From Alicyclobacillus sp. SP_1 (GTDB lineage Bacteria > Bacillota > Bacilli > Alicyclobacillales > Alicyclobacillaceae): a stretch of 64,000 nucleotides of DNA. Shown here one piece after another: positions 1 to 8,612 of the stretch (position 1 is the first letter of the stretch; each line of letters begins with the position of its first letter). The stretch covers positions 1 to 64,000 of the forward strand of contig NZ_JAMCCX010000015.1 of NCBI RefSeq assembly GCF_024706985.1, written 5' to 3'. The translations under genes and the position numbers were made by a program. The notes beneath the pieces are model-generated. The model was not told the origin of the DNA and did not search any database. It saw nothing but the letters and a program-made list of their open reading frames with translations.

Positions 1-160
1 ATGAATGGGTTGTTGCAAGGCGGTATTTCAGCCGAGAGTCTATGGCTAAACTAACCGGCAACGACGAACAACAATTGCTGGCGCTAACGTCAGTTTTGCA
101 TAAATAGCAGACACTGAGTAGTTGCACTCAATTTACACCACTTGACGGGACACTACCCTG
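1..160 (+). pseudogene. Decayed 5' part of a spoVAF/gerA-like gene, cut by window edge
   Basis: This stretch has no intact reading frame, but fragments in different frames resemble the N-terminal domain of SpoVAF/GerA proteins. Frame 1 reads NGLLQGGISAES from base 4. Frame 3 continues from about base 42 as MAKLTGNDEQQLLALTSVLHK before a TAG at 105. Frame 1 then reads VVALNLHHLT from about 118. Removing one G from the GGG run at 147-149 joins that piece to the open frame that follows (LT-DTTLVNRVRKSL), which fits the family pattern. About 130 residues expected between the second and third fragments are absent. I infer frameshifts plus an internal deletion; the comparison is from memory of the family, not a computed alignment. 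Sequencing error could explain a frameshift but not the deletion. Confidence 0.5.
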
Positions 161-1054
161 GTGAACCGTGTGCGCAAGTCCCTTCAAGCCATCGACTCTG
201 ACATCGTTTCCATGGCAGAGCAGGCAGTCACCGACATCATTGCGAAAGTCGGGTGGAACCCTTATCCGACGGTCCGCTATACGGAACGCCCGGACGTAGC
301 AGCCACGGCATTGGTGGATGGACACATTGTGATTGTCGTAGACACGAGTCCGGAAGTCATCATTGCACCCATCACGCTCTTTCAGTTGCTGCAACATCCT
401 GAAGAATATCACTCTTATCCGACGGTTGGAACGTACATGCGCTGGGTCAGCATCATTGCCTGCTTGGTCAGCGTTCTCCTCCCAGGTATCTTTTTATTGG
501 CAAATTTACACCCTAATGTGGTGCCTCCACAGTTCGGTTTCCTAAAAATCAAAAATAACGGGCCCATGCCACTGTGGGCAGAACTGTTTATCGCGGAGAT
601 TGCATTGGACATTTTGCGTATGGCGGTGCTCAACACCCCCGTCAACATTGCCGCGATGGTCAGTATCATTGCCGCTTTCGCATTTGGAGAATTAGCTCCG
701 AACGTCAACTTTTTACCGCCGCAGGTACTTCTCTATGTGGCGCTTGTACTGGTGGCTCAATTGGCTCTCCCTTCCTACGAGCTGGCAACGGCCAATCAAA
801 TTAGCCGATTTTGGATTATTTTTTGGACGCAGGTAGGGCATTGGGTACATCTTCATGCATGGGGATTCGTCTTCTCTGTGGTCACTTGGATTGTTTTTTT
901 GGCCACACGAAAATCGTTCGGTGTTCCCTACCTATGGCCCTTAATGCCGTTCAAATGGACCAACGGCATGCACGAGATTTTATTGAGACGACCGATGACT
1001 CGAGTTCAGGGCCGTCCAGAGGCACTTGGCCCGAAGATGCAGAACCGAAAGTGA
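161..1054 (+). CDS. spoVAF: SpoVAF/GerA-family spore germination membrane protein, N-terminally truncated
   Basis: The open frame encodes 297 residues matching the C-terminal half of SpoVAF/GerA A-subunit proteins, which are normally about 490 residues. Recognisable pieces are the conserved PTVRYTERPDVAA segment near residue 46, a VDTSPEVIIAP stretch near 70, several membrane spans between residues 95 and 250, the PSYELATANQ motif and the terminal PYLWPLMPF motif. SpoVAF belongs to the SpoVA region and acts in the spore inner membrane during germination. The GTG at 161 has no Shine-Dalgarno sequence, and the missing N-terminal domain lies upstream in broken frames. The product is therefore probably a remnant, although the C-terminal part has stayed open. 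Confidence 0.75.
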   Translation: MNRVRKSLQAIDSDIVSMAEQAVTDIIAKVGWNPYPTVRYTERPDVAATALVDGHIVIVVDTSPEVIIAPITLFQLLQHPEEYHSYPTVGTYMRWVSIIACLVSVLLPGIFLLANLHPNVVPPQFGFLKIKNNGPMPLWAELFIAEIALDILRMAVLNTPVNIAAMVSIIAAFAFGELAPNVNFLPPQVLLYVALVLVAQLALPSYELATANQISRFWIIFWTQVGHWVHLHAWGFVFSVVTWIVFLATRKSFGVPYLWPLMPFKWTNGMHEILLRRPMTRVQGRPEALGPKMQNRK

Positions 1055-1634: not shown

Positions 1635-2132
1635 CTATTGCCGCTGCGCGCGCAAGTGAGACTGGCGCACAATACTTCGGTAACGCAGTAACATCACAAT
1701 TCGCCAGGGAAGAAGCATGCCAAACGCAAGTATGAAAAACATACCTCCGGTTTGAGGAAGAGTGACATACTTCGAAATGACGTTGTCTAAAATAAGTCGA
1801 ACAATCAACAGGCCAATCAACACGAGAATAAAGGCTGGTGACCGTCTGAGATACACCTTGTCTCCCTCGACTCGCATCTGCGAAGTCCAAATCAACGGAG
1901 GCGACAACAGCCACCCTGCAGCAAAAGCAATCAGGGCATAGAGCCAGGGAACACGAAGAATGGGAATGACAAACATGAGAAACCCAGATATCATCCCCAT
2001 CGCTGGAATCATAATTTTGCGCGCAGAAGTCGGCCGCTTGGCTGCCTGCCACCGCACGGCAATCACGACCAAGGCACCGATGATCAGAACAACCGTGCTA
2101 ATCACCTGGACCGCTTGATTAGAAAGATGCAT
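1635..2132 (-). CDS. CcdC-like (DUF1453) membrane protein
   Basis: The 165-residue product has four or so hydrophobic spans and the characteristic KRPTSARKIMIPAMGMISGF segment near residue 25, as in CcdC/DUF1453 proteins encoded beside cytochrome c biogenesis genes in Bacillus. Its biochemical role is not established and no ccdA or resABC gene is nearby. The reading frame is open 46 codons further upstream, but the ATG at 2132 has an AAGGGAG Shine-Dalgarno and begins just before the first membrane span, so I chose it. It lies 134 bases downstream of the helicase gene on the same strand and converges with the 158-residue gene. Confidence 0.7.
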   Translation of the reverse strand: MHLSNQAVQVISTVVLIIGALVVIAVRWQAAKRPTSARKIMIPAMGMISGFLMFVIPILRVPWLYALIAFAAGWLLSPPLIWTSQMRVEGDKVYLRRSPAFILVLIGLLIVRLILDNVISKYVTLPQTGGMFFILAFGMLLPWRIVMLLRYRSIVRQSHLRAQRQ

Positions 2133-2266
2133 GACTGGCCTACTCCCTTTCGAATAATCTTCCGGGTTGTCTGCAATTGCCGAAGGCAATCCTCGTCCAA
2201 TTTTAGCACGAATGAACGCCCAATGAAGAACGAATGAATTGTGCTTGCGCGTGCCTGCCAAGGCCT

Positions 2267-5200
2267 TCACCTGAGTCTCCCTCTCAAGCGCTCTACTTCA
2301 AGCTGAATTTTCTCAAGTTCCCCGCTTTTTGATTTCCACCAATTCCGACTCCATACCCGGTGAATTGACCATCCTTGCTGTTCAAGAAACCGTTGGCGAT
2401 ATAAATCCCGTTCCCGGGCGACTTTTGAAGAGTGATACATGGCACCATCGCACTCGATACCCAAGATAAATCGTTGCGGATCGTCAGGATGTACAATCGC
2501 TAGGTCGATTCGATACCCTGAAAATCCGATTTGACTCTGAACTTGATATCCAAGATTGCGAAGCCCTATCGCAACCTCTTCTTCAAACGGACTGTCGTAA
2601 ATCGACACATTTTCAATGGATTGAACTGCTGTGGCATCCAAAACACCTTCAAGAACGGTATTCACTCGACGATAATCACCATCAGAAACGGCTTTGGCAT
2701 ACTCAAGATAACGTTTCAAAAGGCGTGGACCGCGAGAATATGTTTCAACCCGAGTCCACTCACTTGGCTCAAACGAGCATACAATATATATTTTGAACCT
2801 GGCCCGCGTTATTGCAACATTCAAGCGGTTTTCACCCATGTCTTTCGATAAAGCTCCAAACTGACTGACCATTTTCCCATCCTGATCGTTGGCGTACGCG
2901 ACTGAGAACAAGATGATGTCTCGTTCATCACCTTGAACATTTTCTATATTTTTCACAAAAAGTCCAACATATTGGTCGCCATCTTTGCGGGAACGCGCTC
3001 GATCAATCAAGTCTTGAACAGATGGGTCGCTCTGTCCCCTTGCATCCAAGACGTCATGGATGAGTTCGGTCTGATCTGCATTGAATGTGATAATCCCTAG
3101 CGTTGGATGTTGTTGGTCGTATTTCAAGATGTCAATGACAACATCTGCAATTCTCTCTGCCTCTTTCTGATTCCGACGACCCATCCATTTTCCATCCACG
3201 CGAATGAACTCAATCGGTTTTTCCTTACCAAATCCGACGATTGGAGCCGTCTGCATCCGCTTTCCGTAAAAAGCATAGTTAGAAAAATTTATGAGGCCAT
3301 CATTGACAGAGCGGTAATGCCAGGTCAGCCATTGGTCTGCCATCTTCGGCTTACTCCAATCGAGCAAATGCTGCGCCTTCCTGTGGTGGTCGCGGGCAAA
3401 ATCCTCTATCTCATCATCGAGATCATCTTCGTCATCCGTGATGCGAAACAAATTAGTTGGTGGGAGTTGTTTTTCATCCCCTGCAACCACAACCTGCTTT
3501 CCTCGATAAATCGCAGGAAGGGCATTTTCAACAGGGCACTGGGAAGCCTCATCAAAAATAACGAGATCAAACAATCCATTCTCTGGTGGAAATATTGCGC
3601 TTACAGCTTCGGGAGTGCAAAGCCAGCATGGTACGAGCCTTAAAACGTCAGGCGTATACTCACGTAAGACTTTGCGCAGCGGTTTTAATTGACGTTTCTT
3701 ACCGGCTTCGTGTTTTAAAGTTGTTCTTGCTTGACCACGCACGTTTGAAACCTCGAGTGCTAATTGTTGGTCAATCCACTCTGGAACCAATTTGCGCTTC
3801 TCTTGTAACAGCGAACCGTAGCGGCTTCGGGCTTGCTCGAACAGTCCTGTCGATACTTCCGACACATGTTTCTCCACCTGTTCAATGGCATCGATCCAAG
3901 CATGAATAAAACTGTTTTCGATCATTTGTGTCCATAGATCAACGACACTGGGCGTTGATTCTATAGGGGCTCGTTCGCGACATCGATTCATCAAGACTCG
4001 ATTGAAGCCGTCGAGTTCGTCCTTCATTTGATCGAGACGCTGTAAACTGTCAAAGTCTCGAACTGCTTGATGTAAATCATCAAAACGTTTCGCATCGAAA
4101 ATTCCCTGACGAATCATCTCATGGAGCTCGGTCAGGGCATCGCCATCTAGATACGGATTGAGGTCTTCAATATCAATGCTCGCCTGTTCAGTTAAGGATA
4201 TCACTTGGAGAAGCCTGTCTACCGTTAAAGTGAAGCGAGGGTCTGTCAGTCGCGTTAAGTCCTCCTTCGTCATTAAATCAGGCAGCCAATCTTTAAAGCA
4301 AGTTTGCGCCTCAACGTATTTATCCAAAATTTCAAGTGCATGTTGTTTTCTTCGCGCCCAAGCTTCCCACTCTTCAATGGAATTTGTCATAGGTACATCG
4401 GAGAAAAAATGAACTTCGGCTAAATCTTCACGCATTTCTTGGAACAAAAGAAAACTTTTAATTGAATCGAGCTGCTTCTGTAGAGCTTTGCTAGTGAACT
4501 GAACTCCGAATTTGACGCAATATGCCTGTACCTCTTTTTTTAGTCCATACCAAGATGTTGAGACAAAGCGCGTCAGTTTTTGCTGATAGCCAAGAAAGTC
4601 AGCAATCTTTTTCGCACATTCCTTTGCTTCCAACACAGAGAGGTGATCCACAGAATCCGTCGACTCTTTCATGCGATTCAATTTTGGGCTAATTGTTTGG
4701 TGTTTCTGTTTTACTTTTCCGATTTGTTCCTTGGATTCAAATGACTTACCACCGCCCGCGTAAAACATAGACACATGTTCGTGAAGATTTGTACGCTGCA
4801 ATCTCTGTACCGCACTCTTCAATTTAACCAATGCTATTTTGTTTTGCAGTAAAAACTGAGGCGTATAAGGCAATTCCACCTGCATCCATATCTCACTTGC
4901 TTGATGAACAGCACTAGATAGCCGTTTCGTTGTTCCCTCCAATTGCATGTGTTGCTGATTTCCAAAAGAGACAAATGATTTTCGCTTTGCCCAAGGATGT
5001 TTTGAATTATCAAACTTCTGCATCATCACGGTGATCGATCGAATCTCCAACAGACGCTTTTGCAATTCATCATAAGTCATGCTGCTTGCCAAGTCAGACA
5101 CGTCAATGATCAAATTCTGATCCCATTTGGCATGGCCGTATAAATATTGAAGCGTCTTTCCGAATGGTCGTTCAACATGCAGCGAGTGAGCAATCATGTT

Positions 5201-6424
5201 AAGACTGTTAGCCAACGTATCCATTTCGGTGGATATGCGTTCAAGAGCCGTAACCCCAGCGGGTATATTCCTCTGCAAAATAGACCCGATTTTCCCGTAA
5301 ACAACCGCTTTATCGCGATTGACATCGTGCACGAGCACCACTTGGTGATTTAAGTTAATTGCGGCAAGACGATTGTAGACGACTTCGAGCGCAACTGGTT
5401 TTTGACACACAACAAGAACCCGTTGGCCGCGAGCCAGCCGGTCTGCAATGAGATTGACGATCACTTGAGACTTTCCTGTACCCGGTGGTCCATGGACGAT
5501 AAGTCCATCTCGCCCCCGCGAGGCGACTACTGCTGCTTCTTGACTCGCGTCCGTGTTCAGTACGAAAAATGCTTCCTCTTCCTTCTGCTGGTTCAAAAGT
5601 TCTGTCTTCACTTCCGACAACTGCTCATCGATTGGCTCTTTATCAAAGAGCCGGTATAACAAGCCATGCGTCGGCGGATTCTTCAATAATGCTTCATAAT
5701 CGACGAGCAAGTTACTGGTCGATTGACGAAACTTACCGAAAATCATGAACGGCTGAATCCGAAATGGCACTGATTCTACTATAATATCGGACTTCGTTAA
5801 CGACTGAAACGGAGCTAGTGATTCTTCGCCTCTCGTGACTTTCATATTTGCAGCTGAGAAAATCGAATCCACCCACGACCATACATCGTAGGTTGGGACT
5901 TCTTCACCCACTTGTTTCATGGCTTCACCCAAGTTAACGCCGAGAAACCTATTTAAAGCCAAATCCAACACAGGATTTAGGAAAGGCGGATTTTCAGATT
6001 CCAAGTCAATGACCCAATGAGGAACGCCACGGATTTTCTTTTTAAGCAAATGCCCAGGATACATTAGAATGGGGCTGCGGAGAAAAAAGTCTTCTACCAA
6101 GGTCCCCTCCAAAAAACCATACGCCACATGGAATGTATTCGCACCTGTCTCTTGTTCGATTAAATCCAACTCGCGCCTCAGCGTCGTTAACCGGCGATTC
6201 AAAAGAAGCTCTTCATCGGACTGCCCTAGCGCCGTCATCAGAACAATCTCCTGCTTCTGCTCCACGACTGCTTGAGCGATTCGAATGGAATGACCCTCTT
6301 CAGCAAACTCCATGGAACACATGTCCGCGTGATTTTTATTCGTTAATTTGAGTAATCGTAAACTGGGATTTCGCTTACTTAAATCGATAAGTCGATCACG
6401 ATACAATTCAAAAATATCCTGCAC
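2267..6424 (-). CDS. DUF4011-type SF1 helicase with C-terminal PD-(D/E)xK/Vsr-like nuclease
   Basis: The 1385-residue product has an N-terminal DUF4011-like region (RLIDLSKRNPSLR near residue 10) and a split superfamily 1 helicase core: Walker A GPPGTGKS at 312-319, Walker B FDEASQ at about 957-962, motif III GDEKQLPP just after, and the VQGDERDIILFSVAYA and NVAITRAR motifs towards the C-terminus. Between Walker A and B sits a roughly 600-residue, probably helical insertion. The last ~110 residues form a Vsr/DUF559-like nuclease with FEEEVAIGL, GYRIDLAIV and GIECDGAMYH (E1324, D1326, H1331), then a basic helix and HRVWSRNWW. Helicases of this architecture have been grouped with anti-phage defence genes (DUF4011-helicase-Vsr). 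The GTG start has a GAGGTGGG Shine-Dalgarno. The gene looks more AT-rich than its neighbours, which suggests acquisition. Activity in defence is inference. Confidence 0.85.
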   Translation of the reverse strand: MQDIFELYRDRLIDLSKRNPSLRLLKLTNKNHADMCSMEFAEEGHSIRIAQAVVEQKQEIVLMTALGQSDEELLLNRRLTTLRRELDLIEQETGANTFHVAYGFLEGTLVEDFFLRSPILMYPGHLLKKKIRGVPHWVIDLESENPPFLNPVLDLALNRFLGVNLGEAMKQVGEEVPTYDVWSWVDSIFSAANMKVTRGEESLAPFQSLTKSDIIVESVPFRIQPFMIFGKFRQSTSNLLVDYEALLKNPPTHGLLYRLFDKEPIDEQLSEVKTELLNQQKEEEAFFVLNTDASQEAAVVASRGRDGLIVHGPPGTGKSQVIVNLIADRLARGQRVLVVCQKPVALEVVYNRLAAINLNHQVVLVHDVNRDKAVVYGKIGSILQRNIPAGVTALERISTEMDTLANSLNMIAHSLHVERPFGKTLQYLYGHAKWDQNLIIDVSDLASSMTYDELQKRLLEIRSITVMMQKFDNSKHPWAKRKSFVSFGNQQHMQLEGTTKRLSSAVHQASEIWMQVELPYTPQFLLQNKIALVKLKSAVQRLQRTNLHEHVSMFYAGGGKSFESKEQIGKVKQKHQTISPKLNRMKESTDSVDHLSVLEAKECAKKIADFLGYQQKLTRFVSTSWYGLKKEVQAYCVKFGVQFTSKALQKQLDSIKSFLLFQEMREDLAEVHFFSDVPMTNSIEEWEAWARRKQHALEILDKYVEAQTCFKDWLPDLMTKEDLTRLTDPRFTLTVDRLLQVISLTEQASIDIEDLNPYLDGDALTELHEMIRQGIFDAKRFDDLHQAVRDFDSLQRLDQMKDELDGFNRVLMNRCRERAPIESTPSVVDLWTQMIENSFIHAWIDAIEQVEKHVSEVSTGLFEQARSRYGSLLQEKRKLVPEWIDQQLALEVSNVRGQARTTLKHEAGKKRQLKPLRKVLREYTPDVLRLVPCWLCTPEAVSAIFPPENGLFDLVIFDEASQCPVENALPAIYRGKQVVVAGDEKQLPPTNLFRITDDEDDLDDEIEDFARDHHRKAQHLLDWSKPKMADQWLTWHYRSVNDGLINFSNYAFYGKRMQTAPIVGFGKEKPIEFIRVDGKWMGRRNQKEAERIADVVIDILKYDQQHPTLGIITFNADQTELIHDVLDARGQSDPSVQDLIDRARSRKDGDQYVGLFVKNIENVQGDERDIILFSVAYANDQDGKMVSQFGALSKDMGENRLNVAITRARFKIYIVCSFEPSEWTRVETYSRGPRLLKRYLEYAKAVSDGDYRRVNTVLEGVLDATAVQSIENVSIYDSPFEEEVAIGLRNLGYQVQSQIGFSGYRIDLAIVHPDDPQRFILGIECDGAMYHSSKVARERDLYRQRFLEQQGWSIHRVWSRNWWKSKSGELEKIQLEVERLRGRLR

Positions 6425-6638: not shown

Positions 6639-6680
6639 AAAAAAACCTTGTAATACGCTAGTTTTGCGCATTACAAGGTT
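6639..6680 (-). terminator. Rho-independent terminator downstream of glmS
   Basis: Perfect 11-base inverted repeat (AACCTTGTAAT at 6644-6654 and its complement at 6670-6680) with a partly paired loop. It is followed on the minus strand by a run of seven Ts. It ends the glmS transcript. I see no gene or other element in the rest of 6425-6782, which separates glmS from the helicase gene. Confidence 0.9.
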
Positions 6681-6782: not shown

Positions 6783-8612
6783 CTACTCTACTGTCACCGA
6801 TTTGGCCAAATTACGCGGCTTATCCACGTCATTGCCACGCGAAACTGCTGCATAGTAGGCCAACAGTTGTAACGGAATGACATGAAGAATGGGGGCAACA
6901 TCGGGCGCTGTAAGAGGCAGGTAAATCACCGCATCGACCGATTTGGCCAAATCCTCATTGCCTACCCACGTAAGTCCAAGCACGAATGCTCCGCGCGCCT
7001 TGACTTCTTTGATATTGCTGACCGTCTTTTCATAAAGACTCGGCTGTGTGGCAAGGGCAATCACTGGGACACCCTCGGTGATGAGCGCAAGAGTCCCGTG
7101 CTTCAGTTCACCTGCTGCATAGGCTTCTGCATGGATATAGGAAATTTCTTTTAATTTTAATGCACCTTCTAGAGCGACAGAGTAGTCCAGTCCGCGACCG
7201 ATAAAGAAGGTATGCTCGGCGTGAACCCATTCCTTTGCAAACTGTTCCATATGCGGCGCCGTATCCACAACCTGTTCCGCCAACTGTGGCAAACTGTCCA
7301 GGGCGACAAGAACATCTCGCGCCTGTGCCAGTGTCAATTCTGCACGAATCTGTCCAAGGTGCACCGCGAGTAGATAGAGCGCTATCAATTGAGTGGTGTA
7401 AGCTTTCGTCGAAGCAACAGCAATTTCCGGCCCAGCCCAAGTGACCAAAACATCGTTGGCTTCGCGTGCCGCAGAGCTTCCGACAACATTCGTGATGGCC
7501 AGCACGTGGAGCCCCCGCGCTTTACATTCGCGTAAAGCGGCTAACGTGTCCGCCGTTTCTCCAGATTGCGAGATGACCACAATCAACGTATTGTCCGTCC
7601 TGACCGCGTCCCGGTAACGATATTCACTGGCAATCTCTACATCCACCGGGATGCGCGCGTACTTTTCCAGAACTACCTTTCCTACGAGTCCCGCGTGCCA
7701 AGACGTACCACAGGCGACAATATGGATCCGATCTATCGCGCGGATTTTGTCGTCTGACAGGGTCAAATCCGGCAAAACGACTCTAGATAAATCTTCTGAA
7801 ATACGTCCCGTCAACGTGTCGCGAATGGCCTTCGGCTGTTCGTGAATCTCTTTCAACATGAAGTGATCATATCCGCCGCGCTCCGCCGCCACTGCATCCC
7901 AGGTGACTTGATAGACGTCTTTCAGCACCGGTATTCCATCCAGAGTAAAACAGTCCACACGGTCCTTTCTAACCACGGCCATTTCACCATCGTCGAGCAC
8001 GTAAACATTGCGCGTATACTCGAGAATGGCGGGAATGTCCGACGCGATAAAGTTTTCCTCTTGGCCCAATCCGACAATAAGCGGACTGGATTTGCGCATG
8101 GCGAATATGGTATCTGGATGGTCTTTGGCCAATACGACGAGAGCATACGCTCCGTGAATTCGTTCCCCCACAGCTATCATCGTTTGAAACAAATCGCCAT
8201 TATATACTTCCTCTATCAAATGAGCCACCACTTCCGTATCGGTTTCCGAACGAAACGTGTGCCCAGCAGCCTCAAGTTCTTCCCTTAACTGCAGATAGTT
8301 TTCGACAATTCCGTTGTGCACAATCGCAAACCTACCACTGCAGTCCTGGTGGGGATGAGCATTGTCGTCGGACGGGCGTCCATGCGTCGCCCAACGCGTA
8401 TGACCAATCCCAAGATGTCCATCCAAACTCTCCGTAACAAGCTTATCCTCCAAATTCACAAGTCGTCCAACCGATTTAATGACTTTAAGTTTGCCATCCT
8501 CTAAAGTGGCAATTCCAGCAGAGTCGTATCCTCGATACTCCAATTTGCGCAGCCCACCAACGACGACTTCTTTCACATTTCTCGATCCGATATAGCCCAC
8601 AATCCCACACAT
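6783..8612 (-). CDS. glmS: Glutamine--fructose-6-phosphate aminotransferase (isomerizing)
   Basis: GlmS converts fructose-6-phosphate and glutamine to glucosamine-6-phosphate, the entry step to UDP-GlcNAc and the cell wall. The 609-residue length is normal. The N-terminal class II glutaminase begins MCGIVGYIG with the catalytic Cys2 and carries the HTRWATHG and HNGIVENY motifs. Two SIS isomerase domains follow (CGTSWHAG, SQSGETADT), and the protein ends with the typical PRNLAKSVTVE tail with its conserved Lys. The ATG has an AAGGAGG ribosome site. Expression should be set by the glmS ribozyme in the leader, and glmM upstream supplies the next pathway step. Confidence 0.98.
   Translation of the reverse strand: MCGIVGYIGSRNVKEVVVGGLRKLEYRGYDSAGIATLEDGKLKVIKSVGRLVNLEDKLVTESLDGHLGIGHTRWATHGRPSDDNAHPHQDCSGRFAIVHNGIVENYLQLREELEAAGHTFRSETDTEVVAHLIEEVYNGDLFQTMIAVGERIHGAYALVVLAKDHPDTIFAMRKSSPLIVGLGQEENFIASDIPAILEYTRNVYVLDDGEMAVVRKDRVDCFTLDGIPVLKDVYQVTWDAVAAERGGYDHFMLKEIHEQPKAIRDTLTGRISEDLSRVVLPDLTLSDDKIRAIDRIHIVACGTSWHAGLVGKVVLEKYARIPVDVEIASEYRYRDAVRTDNTLIVVISQSGETADTLAALRECKARGLHVLAITNVVGSSAAREANDVLVTWAGPEIAVASTKAYTTQLIALYLLAVHLGQIRAELTLAQARDVLVALDSLPQLAEQVVDTAPHMEQFAKEWVHAEHTFFIGRGLDYSVALEGALKLKEISYIHAEAYAAGELKHGTLALITEGVPVIALATQPSLYEKTVSNIKEVKARGAFVLGLTWVGNEDLAKSVDAVIYLPLTAPDVAPILHVIPLQLLAYYAAVSRGNDVDKPRNLAKSVTVE

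What the first reader, a model, noticed from the sequence alone, without database searches (positions are those of the whole stretch)
2267..6424. Stand-alone DUF4011-helicase-Vsr-like nuclease, candidate defence gene
A single 1385-residue protein joins a DUF4011-like N-terminus, an SF1 helicase with a long helical insertion and a PD-(D/E)xK/Vsr-like nuclease (E1324, D1326). Proteins with this order have been grouped with anti-phage systems. Here it has no methyltransferase or other partner beside it, so it may act alone. The nuclease retains its acidic residues, and the helicase motifs look complete, so the gene appears active.
Basis: partly seen in the sequence, partly recalled or inferred. 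Interest (0 to 1): 0.72.

Follow-up and report, generated by a model that had tools for sequence, protein, structure and literature searches.

The report
Compact stand-alone DUF4011 helicase-nuclease
A single intact bacterial gene encodes a DNA-unwinding motor fused to a DNA-cutting domain; it is a shortened relative of known anti-phage proteins, it moves between species on its own, and it most likely protects the cell against foreign DNA, although nobody has tested this.

Summary
In detail: window 2267-6424, minus strand, is one intact 1385-aa ORF with DUF4011, a Upf1/Dna2-type SF1 helicase and an MTES_1575 (Vsr-like) nuclease, with every motif conserved in close relatives. It belongs to a well-supported compact clade (about 1250-1430 aa). 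That clade is sister to the long Hhe/ProA-type anti-phage proteins but lacks their DUF3320/winged-helix tail and the ProA N-terminal extension. It scores 702 bits against ProA (cut-off 1500) and 452 against Hhe (cut-off 2000), so it is a relative of both and a member of neither. It also matches PADLOC's untested candidate PDC-S37. The gene is accessory and mobile: 5 of 41 genomes in its family and 24 of 399 in its class have it. It is 71% identical to copies in another family whose GlmS is only 62-64% identical, and it has low GC. It sits at a different site in each genome, without a recurrent partner. Stand-alone defence is the best reading (about 60%). A warning: the Bacteroidota branch of the same compact clade is a near-universal single-copy gene (35 of 41 genomes) with an altered nuclease site, so defence cannot be assumed for the whole clade.

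The parts
2267..6424 (-). 1385-aa compact DUF4011 / SF1B helicase / MTES_1575 nuclease gene (GTG start at 6424, TGA stop at 2267-2269)
5963..6394 (-). DUF4011 domain (residues 11-154); mixed alpha/beta fold in the model, no convincing PDB match
   Evidence: Pfam PF13195 E 3e-9; model pLDDT 78
5468..5491 (-). Walker A GPPGTGKS (residues 312-319)
3635..5248 (-). long all-helical insertion between helicase motifs Ia and II (about residues 393-930); 645 residues from Walker A to DEAS, against about 508 in other Bacilli members
   Evidence: model secondary structure; spacing
3458..3556 (-). helicase motifs II (FDEASQ) and III (GDEKQLPP), residues 957-989
2774..3340 (-). second RecA domain, AAA_12 (residues 1029-1217), motifs IV-VI
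   Evidence: Pfam PF13087 E 3e-18
2303..2587 (-). MTES_1575 Vsr-like nuclease (residues 1280-1374); D1307 at 2504-2506, E1324 at 2453-2455, D1326 at 2447-2449; only 11 residues follow, so no DUF3320 winged-helix tail
   Evidence: Pfam PF18741 E 3e-34
6639..6678 (-). intrinsic terminator (13-bp stem, T7) after glmS, separating it from the helicase gene
   Evidence: sequence and fold -18.7 kcal/mol
6783..8612 (-). glmS, upstream core neighbour (end of the cdaA-ybbR-glmM-glmS cluster); not part of the system
1635..2135 (-). ccdC (DUF1453), downstream neighbour; not part of the system; likely true start near 2135, because homologues lack the first 45 or so residues of the ORF
   Evidence: Pfam PF07301 E 3e-45

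Best explanation
A stand-alone, horizontally moving defence nuclease of the DUF4011-SF1-Vsr superfamily, in a compact form. SHOWN: architecture, intact motifs, purifying selection in relatives, patchy mobile occurrence, no partner. INFERRED: the Upf1/Dna2-like (5'-to-3' class) helicase loads on a DNA end, gap, fork or replication/recombination intermediate of an incoming phage or plasmid. It uses ATP to translocate or unwind. ATP hydrolysis, with remodelling of the DUF4011 domain and the long helical insertion (the likely sensor and clamp), places or releases the C-terminal Vsr-like nuclease, which nicks or cuts the DNA. There is no methyltransferase, so self/non-self discrimination should rest on DNA structure or a phage-triggered intermediate and not on sequence modification. 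The winged-helix domain proposed to recognise DNA in the long relatives is absent, so recognition must lie in the DUF4011/helicase/insertion part.
For: Domains and motifs. Nearest curated families are all anti-phage: PDC-S37 675 bits and Hhe 318 in PADLOC, ProA 702 and Hhe 452 in NCBIfam. Helicase core matches IGHMBP2, Upf1, Sen1 and Dna2 by sequence and fold. Accessory: 5 of 41 family genomes, 24 of 399 class genomes, absent from the one other species of its genus searched. Transfer: 71% identity to G039/G040 against GlmS 62-64% and CcdC 55-59%; in the tree the f2 copies nest with the window inside an f1 group, supports 99-100; GC 45% against 51%. Different site in each genome, no shared partner. 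Transposases beside the G026 copy; type I R-M directly beside the G140 copy and near the G337 copy. Long relatives on conjugative plasmids pass the ProA cut-off, with AbiJ, toxin-antitoxin or transposase neighbours.
Against: No phage or plasmid assay exists for any compact member that I could find. No defence island around the window gene; few defence neighbours in two scans. The Bacteroidota compact branch is a near-universal single-copy gene, and a DUF4011 gene is also core in every P. aeruginosa isolate (PMC10250203), so some members are probably not conventional defence genes.
Confidence: 0.6

Rival explanations
1. A mobile accessory DNA-repair or recombination enzyme (Dna2/IGHMBP2-like helicase-nuclease) that processes stalled forks or flaps, kept for genome maintenance and not for defence.
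For: Helicase core closest to IGHMBP2, Upf1, Sen1 and Dna2. In Bacteroidota the same compact architecture is a single-copy gene in 35 of 41 genomes of one family, next to a ComEA-like helix-hairpin-helix gene in six of nine loci and TerC in two.
Against: In the Bacilli the gene is rare, moves between families and is lost to fragments in G002. The intact ExD site of the Bacilli branch differs from the altered Bacteroidota site. The nearest named families are anti-phage.
Confidence: 0.22
2. A type IV-like restriction enzyme aimed mainly at plasmids, or at modified, damaged or mismatched DNA, with phages as secondary targets.
For: Vsr-type nuclease fused to a motor and no modification gene; type I R-M beside two Bacilli copies.
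Against: No known modification-binding domain is detected. The target preference cannot be read from sequence.
Confidence: 0.15
3. An inactive or decaying passenger gene left by horizontal transfer.
For: A decayed remnant exists in the relative G002.
Against: The window copy is uninterrupted over 1385 codons with every catalytic motif; G039/G040 dN/dS is 0.18.
Confidence: 0.03

Closest known systems
PDC-S37 (PADLOC phage-defence candidate, single gene)
   Same: Best PADLOC match: 675 bits over residues 51-1381, single gene.
   Different: The model is 1550 positions and matched only at 78-1342; it is a candidate without a tested function that I could find, and its cut-off is not shown by the tool.
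ProA anti-phage protein (NCBIfam NF058533)
   Same: Co-linear over DUF4011, helicase and MTES_1575; 702 bits.
   Different: Below the 1500-bit cut-off; lacks about 400 N-terminal positions and the about 190 C-terminal positions that hold DUF3320. Plasmid-borne Klebsiella and Pseudomonas proteins do pass, at 2225 and 2372 bits.
Hhe (NCBIfam NF042953 / PADLOC Hhe)
   Same: Upf1-type SF1 helicase plus Vsr-like nuclease, DUF4011; Hhe is placed in SF1_Upf1 in PMC10925250.
   Different: 452 bits against a cut-off of 2000, best stretch only the C-terminal 480 residues; about 400-500 residues shorter.
MTES_1575-type giant proteins (HEPN, transglutaminase-like, SF-I helicase, Vsr REase, two wHTH; PMC3710099)
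   Same: Helicase plus Vsr REase without modification genes; proposed there to act without modification.
   Different: The window protein has no HEPN, no transglutaminase and no wHTH/DUF3320, the part proposed there to recognise DNA.
Dna2 / Upf1 / IGHMBP2 SF1B helicases
   Same: Helicase core by sequence and fold.
   Different: DUF4011, the 540-residue helical insertion and the C-terminal Vsr-like nuclease.

Membership tests
ProA (NF058533) | Score at or above the curated cut-off of 1500 bits | tested here: not met
   702 bits; 704 on the genome search
ProA (NF058533) | Full-length architecture with N-terminal extension and C-terminal DUF3320 | tested here: not met
   match begins at profile position 399; no DUF3320; only 11 residues after the nuclease; ProA-passing plasmid proteins have DUF3320
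Hhe (NF042953) | Score at or above the curated cut-off of 2000 bits | tested here: not met
   452 bits
PDC-S37 (PADLOC) | Best-matching PADLOC model over nearly the full protein | tested here: met
   E 9e-203, residues 51-1381
PDC-S37 (PADLOC) | PADLOC's own score and coverage thresholds for the system | not testable with these tools
   thresholds are not given by the tool
DUF4011-SF1-Vsr superfamily | DUF4011 + AAA_11/AAA_12 + MTES_1575 in one protein, all above gathering score | tested here: met
Anti-phage defence gene | Accessory, patchy, horizontally moved occurrence | tested here: met
Anti-phage defence gene | Location in a defence island | tested here: not met
   window neighbours are glmS and ccdC
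Anti-phage defence gene | Defence genes repeatedly near relatives | tested here: inconclusive
   type I R-M beside or near about 2 of 17 Bacilli loci; few hits otherwise; no formal background rate
Anti-phage defence gene | Protects against phage in an assay | not testable with these tools
   needs an experiment
Housekeeping core gene | Same locus in all relatives | tested here: not met
   for the Bacilli lineage

The most novel reading that the evidence does not exclude
The compact clade is a separate lineage, sister to Hhe/ProA, that senses foreign DNA through the DUF4011 domain and the helical insertion with no winged-helix reader. One branch (Bacilli) stayed a mobile stand-alone restriction gene. 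The other (Cytophagales and relatives) was domesticated into a near-universal single-copy gene with a rebuilt or silenced nuclease, possibly tied to DNA uptake or repair, as its ComEA-like neighbour suggests.
Probability: 0.3. Interest if true: 0.65.

Novelty: new variant of a known kind. Interest (0 to 1): 0.42.

Why it matters
If true, it defines the minimal working core of a large group of helicase-nuclease immune proteins. At 1250-1400 residues it is easier to express, solve and mutate than the 1700-2200-residue relatives, for which no solved structure of the DUF4011 type was found in the PDB copy searched. The split between a mobile Bacilli branch with an intact nuclease and a core Bacteroidota branch with an altered one gives a direct way to ask what the nuclease and the insertion each do.

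Tried and rejected
Membership in ProA or Hhe was rejected on score and architecture. A conserved operon partner was rejected: the roughly 300-aa gene upstream of many Bacteroidota copies is ComEA-like, TerC or a dehydrogenase depending on genome, and no neighbour recurs in 17 Bacilli loci. Defence-island enrichment was weak: a mixed set of 123 neighbours gave only scattered, mostly cross-hitting matches, and ten chosen neighbours gave none. The source paper for ProA and any paper naming PDC-S37 were not found in the library. The fold of the DUF4011 domain was compared with the PDB by Foldseek and VIA-align without a convincing match (best VIA Z 3.1), which does not show that the fold is new. 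dS between the window copy and G039/G040 is saturated, so dN/dS is given only for the G039/G040 pair.

Full report
Observation. Window 2267-6424 holds one uninterrupted ORF of 1385 codons on the minus strand. It starts with GTG behind an AGGTGG ribosome site and stops with TGA. Pfam places DUF4011 at residues 11-154, AAA_11 (E 1e-19) and AAA_12 (1029-1217) across the helicase and MTES_1575 at 1280-1374, all above the curated cut-offs. Walker A, DEAS, GDEKQLPP, WHYRS, NVQGDERD and NRLNVAITRAR are present and are invariant or nearly so in relatives down to about 37% identity. In the closest relatives pair the gene is under purifying selection, dN/dS 0.18 overall and 0.14 in the second RecA plus nuclease part.

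Surroundings. Upstream lies the core cluster cdaA-ybbR-glmM-glmS. A strong intrinsic terminator (13-bp stem, -18.7 kcal/mol, T7) at 6639-6678 separates glmS from the helicase gene, so the gene is probably transcribed from its own promoter. Downstream is ccdC (DUF1453), whose true start is probably near 2135, because homologues match only from about residue 46. In other genomes glmS and ccdC lie apart from each other and from the helicase. The gene has 45.2% GC and GC3 0.45, against 51.4% for the window and GC3 of 0.52-0.61 for its neighbours.

Distribution. Close homologues (E up to 1e-120) occur in 5 of 41 genomes of the family and 24 of 399 of the class, in 21 of 145 genera. The one other species of the genus that was searched has none. 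The best matches, 71% identical over the whole length, are in two species of another family (G039, G040). Their GlmS is only 62-64% identical to the window's and their CcdC 55-59%, although GlmS is a highly conserved enzyme. In the tree, the window pairs with these two inside a group whose other members come from the window's own family, with supports of 99-100. A decayed remnant is present in G002. Together these point to repeated horizontal movement and loss.

Context elsewhere. The homologues sit at different places: beside efflux pumps, glycosyltransferases, polA or transposases. Seventeen further Bacilli loci share no recurrent neighbour, so the stand-alone state is general. A type I restriction-modification operon lies directly beside the G140 copy (51% identical) and near the G337 copy. 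That is suggestive, but no formal background rate was computed. Two other neighbour scans showed little.

Relation to known systems. PADLOC's best match is PDC-S37, a single-gene candidate (675 bits), then Hhe. NCBIfam's are ProA (702 bits, cut-off 1500) and Hhe (452 bits, cut-off 2000). Plasmid-borne proteins of Klebsiella and Pseudomonas do pass the ProA cut-off and carry DUF3320 after the nuclease. In the order itself there are separate long-form genes at about 1480 bits. A tree of the helicase-nuclease part of 89 sequences separates a compact group (23 rows, support 99) from the long DUF3320 group. The tree is a quick one without bootstrap, and a few rows have long branches. A 2013 analysis described the giant MTES_1575-type proteins (HEPN, transglutaminase-like, SF-I helicase, Vsr REase, winged helices) and proposed that the C-terminal winged helices recognise invading DNA without any modification enzyme (PMC3710099). 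The compact proteins have neither HEPN nor winged helices, so that recognition model cannot hold for them.

Structure. Models of residues 1-310 (pLDDT 78) and 270-1385 (pLDDT 83) were made from 19 compact sequences. The helicase core matches Upf1, IGHMBP2, Sen1 and Dna2 by sequence and by fold, which places it in SF1B, a class that moves 5' to 3' (established knowledge). Residues of about 393-930 form an all-helical insertion. The window's subgroup has about 137 more residues there than other Bacilli members (645 against 508 between Walker A and DEAS). The DUF4011 domain gave no convincing match.

Mechanism. The parts fit a motor-driven nuclease: the helicase loads on unusual or free DNA, the DUF4011 domain and helical insertion sense it, and the C-terminal nuclease cuts. 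Shown here: the parts, their conservation and mobility. Inferred: substrate, trigger, direction of movement and the link between ATP hydrolysis and cutting. Other helicase defence systems give precedents for damage sensing, such as Hachiman (PMC10925250).

A caution. In Bacteroidota the same compact architecture is a single-copy gene in 35 of 41 genomes of the family of Dyadobacter. In the nine loci read it lies beside a ComEA-like helix-hairpin-helix gene in six and beside TerC in two (TerC named from the sequence by own knowledge). Its nuclease is altered: the glutamate equivalent to E1324 is replaced, mostly by threonine, while D1307 and D1326 are kept, and Pfam no longer detects the nuclease in the member tested. 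Whether it is inactive or only changed cannot be told from sequence, since Vsr itself uses a threonine near that position (own knowledge). A DUF4011 gene is also core in all P. aeruginosa isolates, where it flanks a defence hotspot (PMC10250203). So 'DUF4011-helicase' alone does not prove defence.

Verdict. The protein is a compact variant of a known kind and not a ProA or Hhe. Being stand-alone is the rule for this clade, so that part of the finding is correct but not special to this window.

Noticed in passing
L065, L066, L068-L070, L073, L075, L077, L116; genomes G419-G462: Bacteroidota compact DUF4011-helicases are near-universal single-copy genes (35 of 41 genomes of one family), with the nuclease E1324 equivalent replaced (mostly by T) and a ComEA-like or TerC neighbour: a possible domesticated immune gene.
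   Followed up: partly
window 1-1054, + strand: GerA spore-germination ORF at 161-1051 matches only the C-terminal part of the family (profile 184-465) and stop codons break all three + frames upstream: an N-terminally truncated or broken gerA copy next to the contig end.
   Followed up: partly
L146 1465-13335: On a Halalkalicoccus plasmid a DUF4011 gene follows genes annotated as a NucS-domain endonuclease, a PD-(D/E)XK nuclease and a UvrD helicase (AddAB-like pair), with an HNH endonuclease after it: a possible larger system.
   Followed up: no
L047, L048, L049, L050: Separate long-form (1660-1960 aa) DUF4011 helicase-nucleases occur in the same bacterial family; two of them (in G006 and G009) score 1482-1487 bits, just under the 1500-bit ProA cut-off, so that cut-off may exclude true relatives.
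   Followed up: partly
window 2774-5248 and L150-L166: The helical insertion differs by about 137 residues between two Bacilli subgroups (645 against 508 residues from Walker A to DEAS), which may mark different sensing parts.
   Followed up: partly
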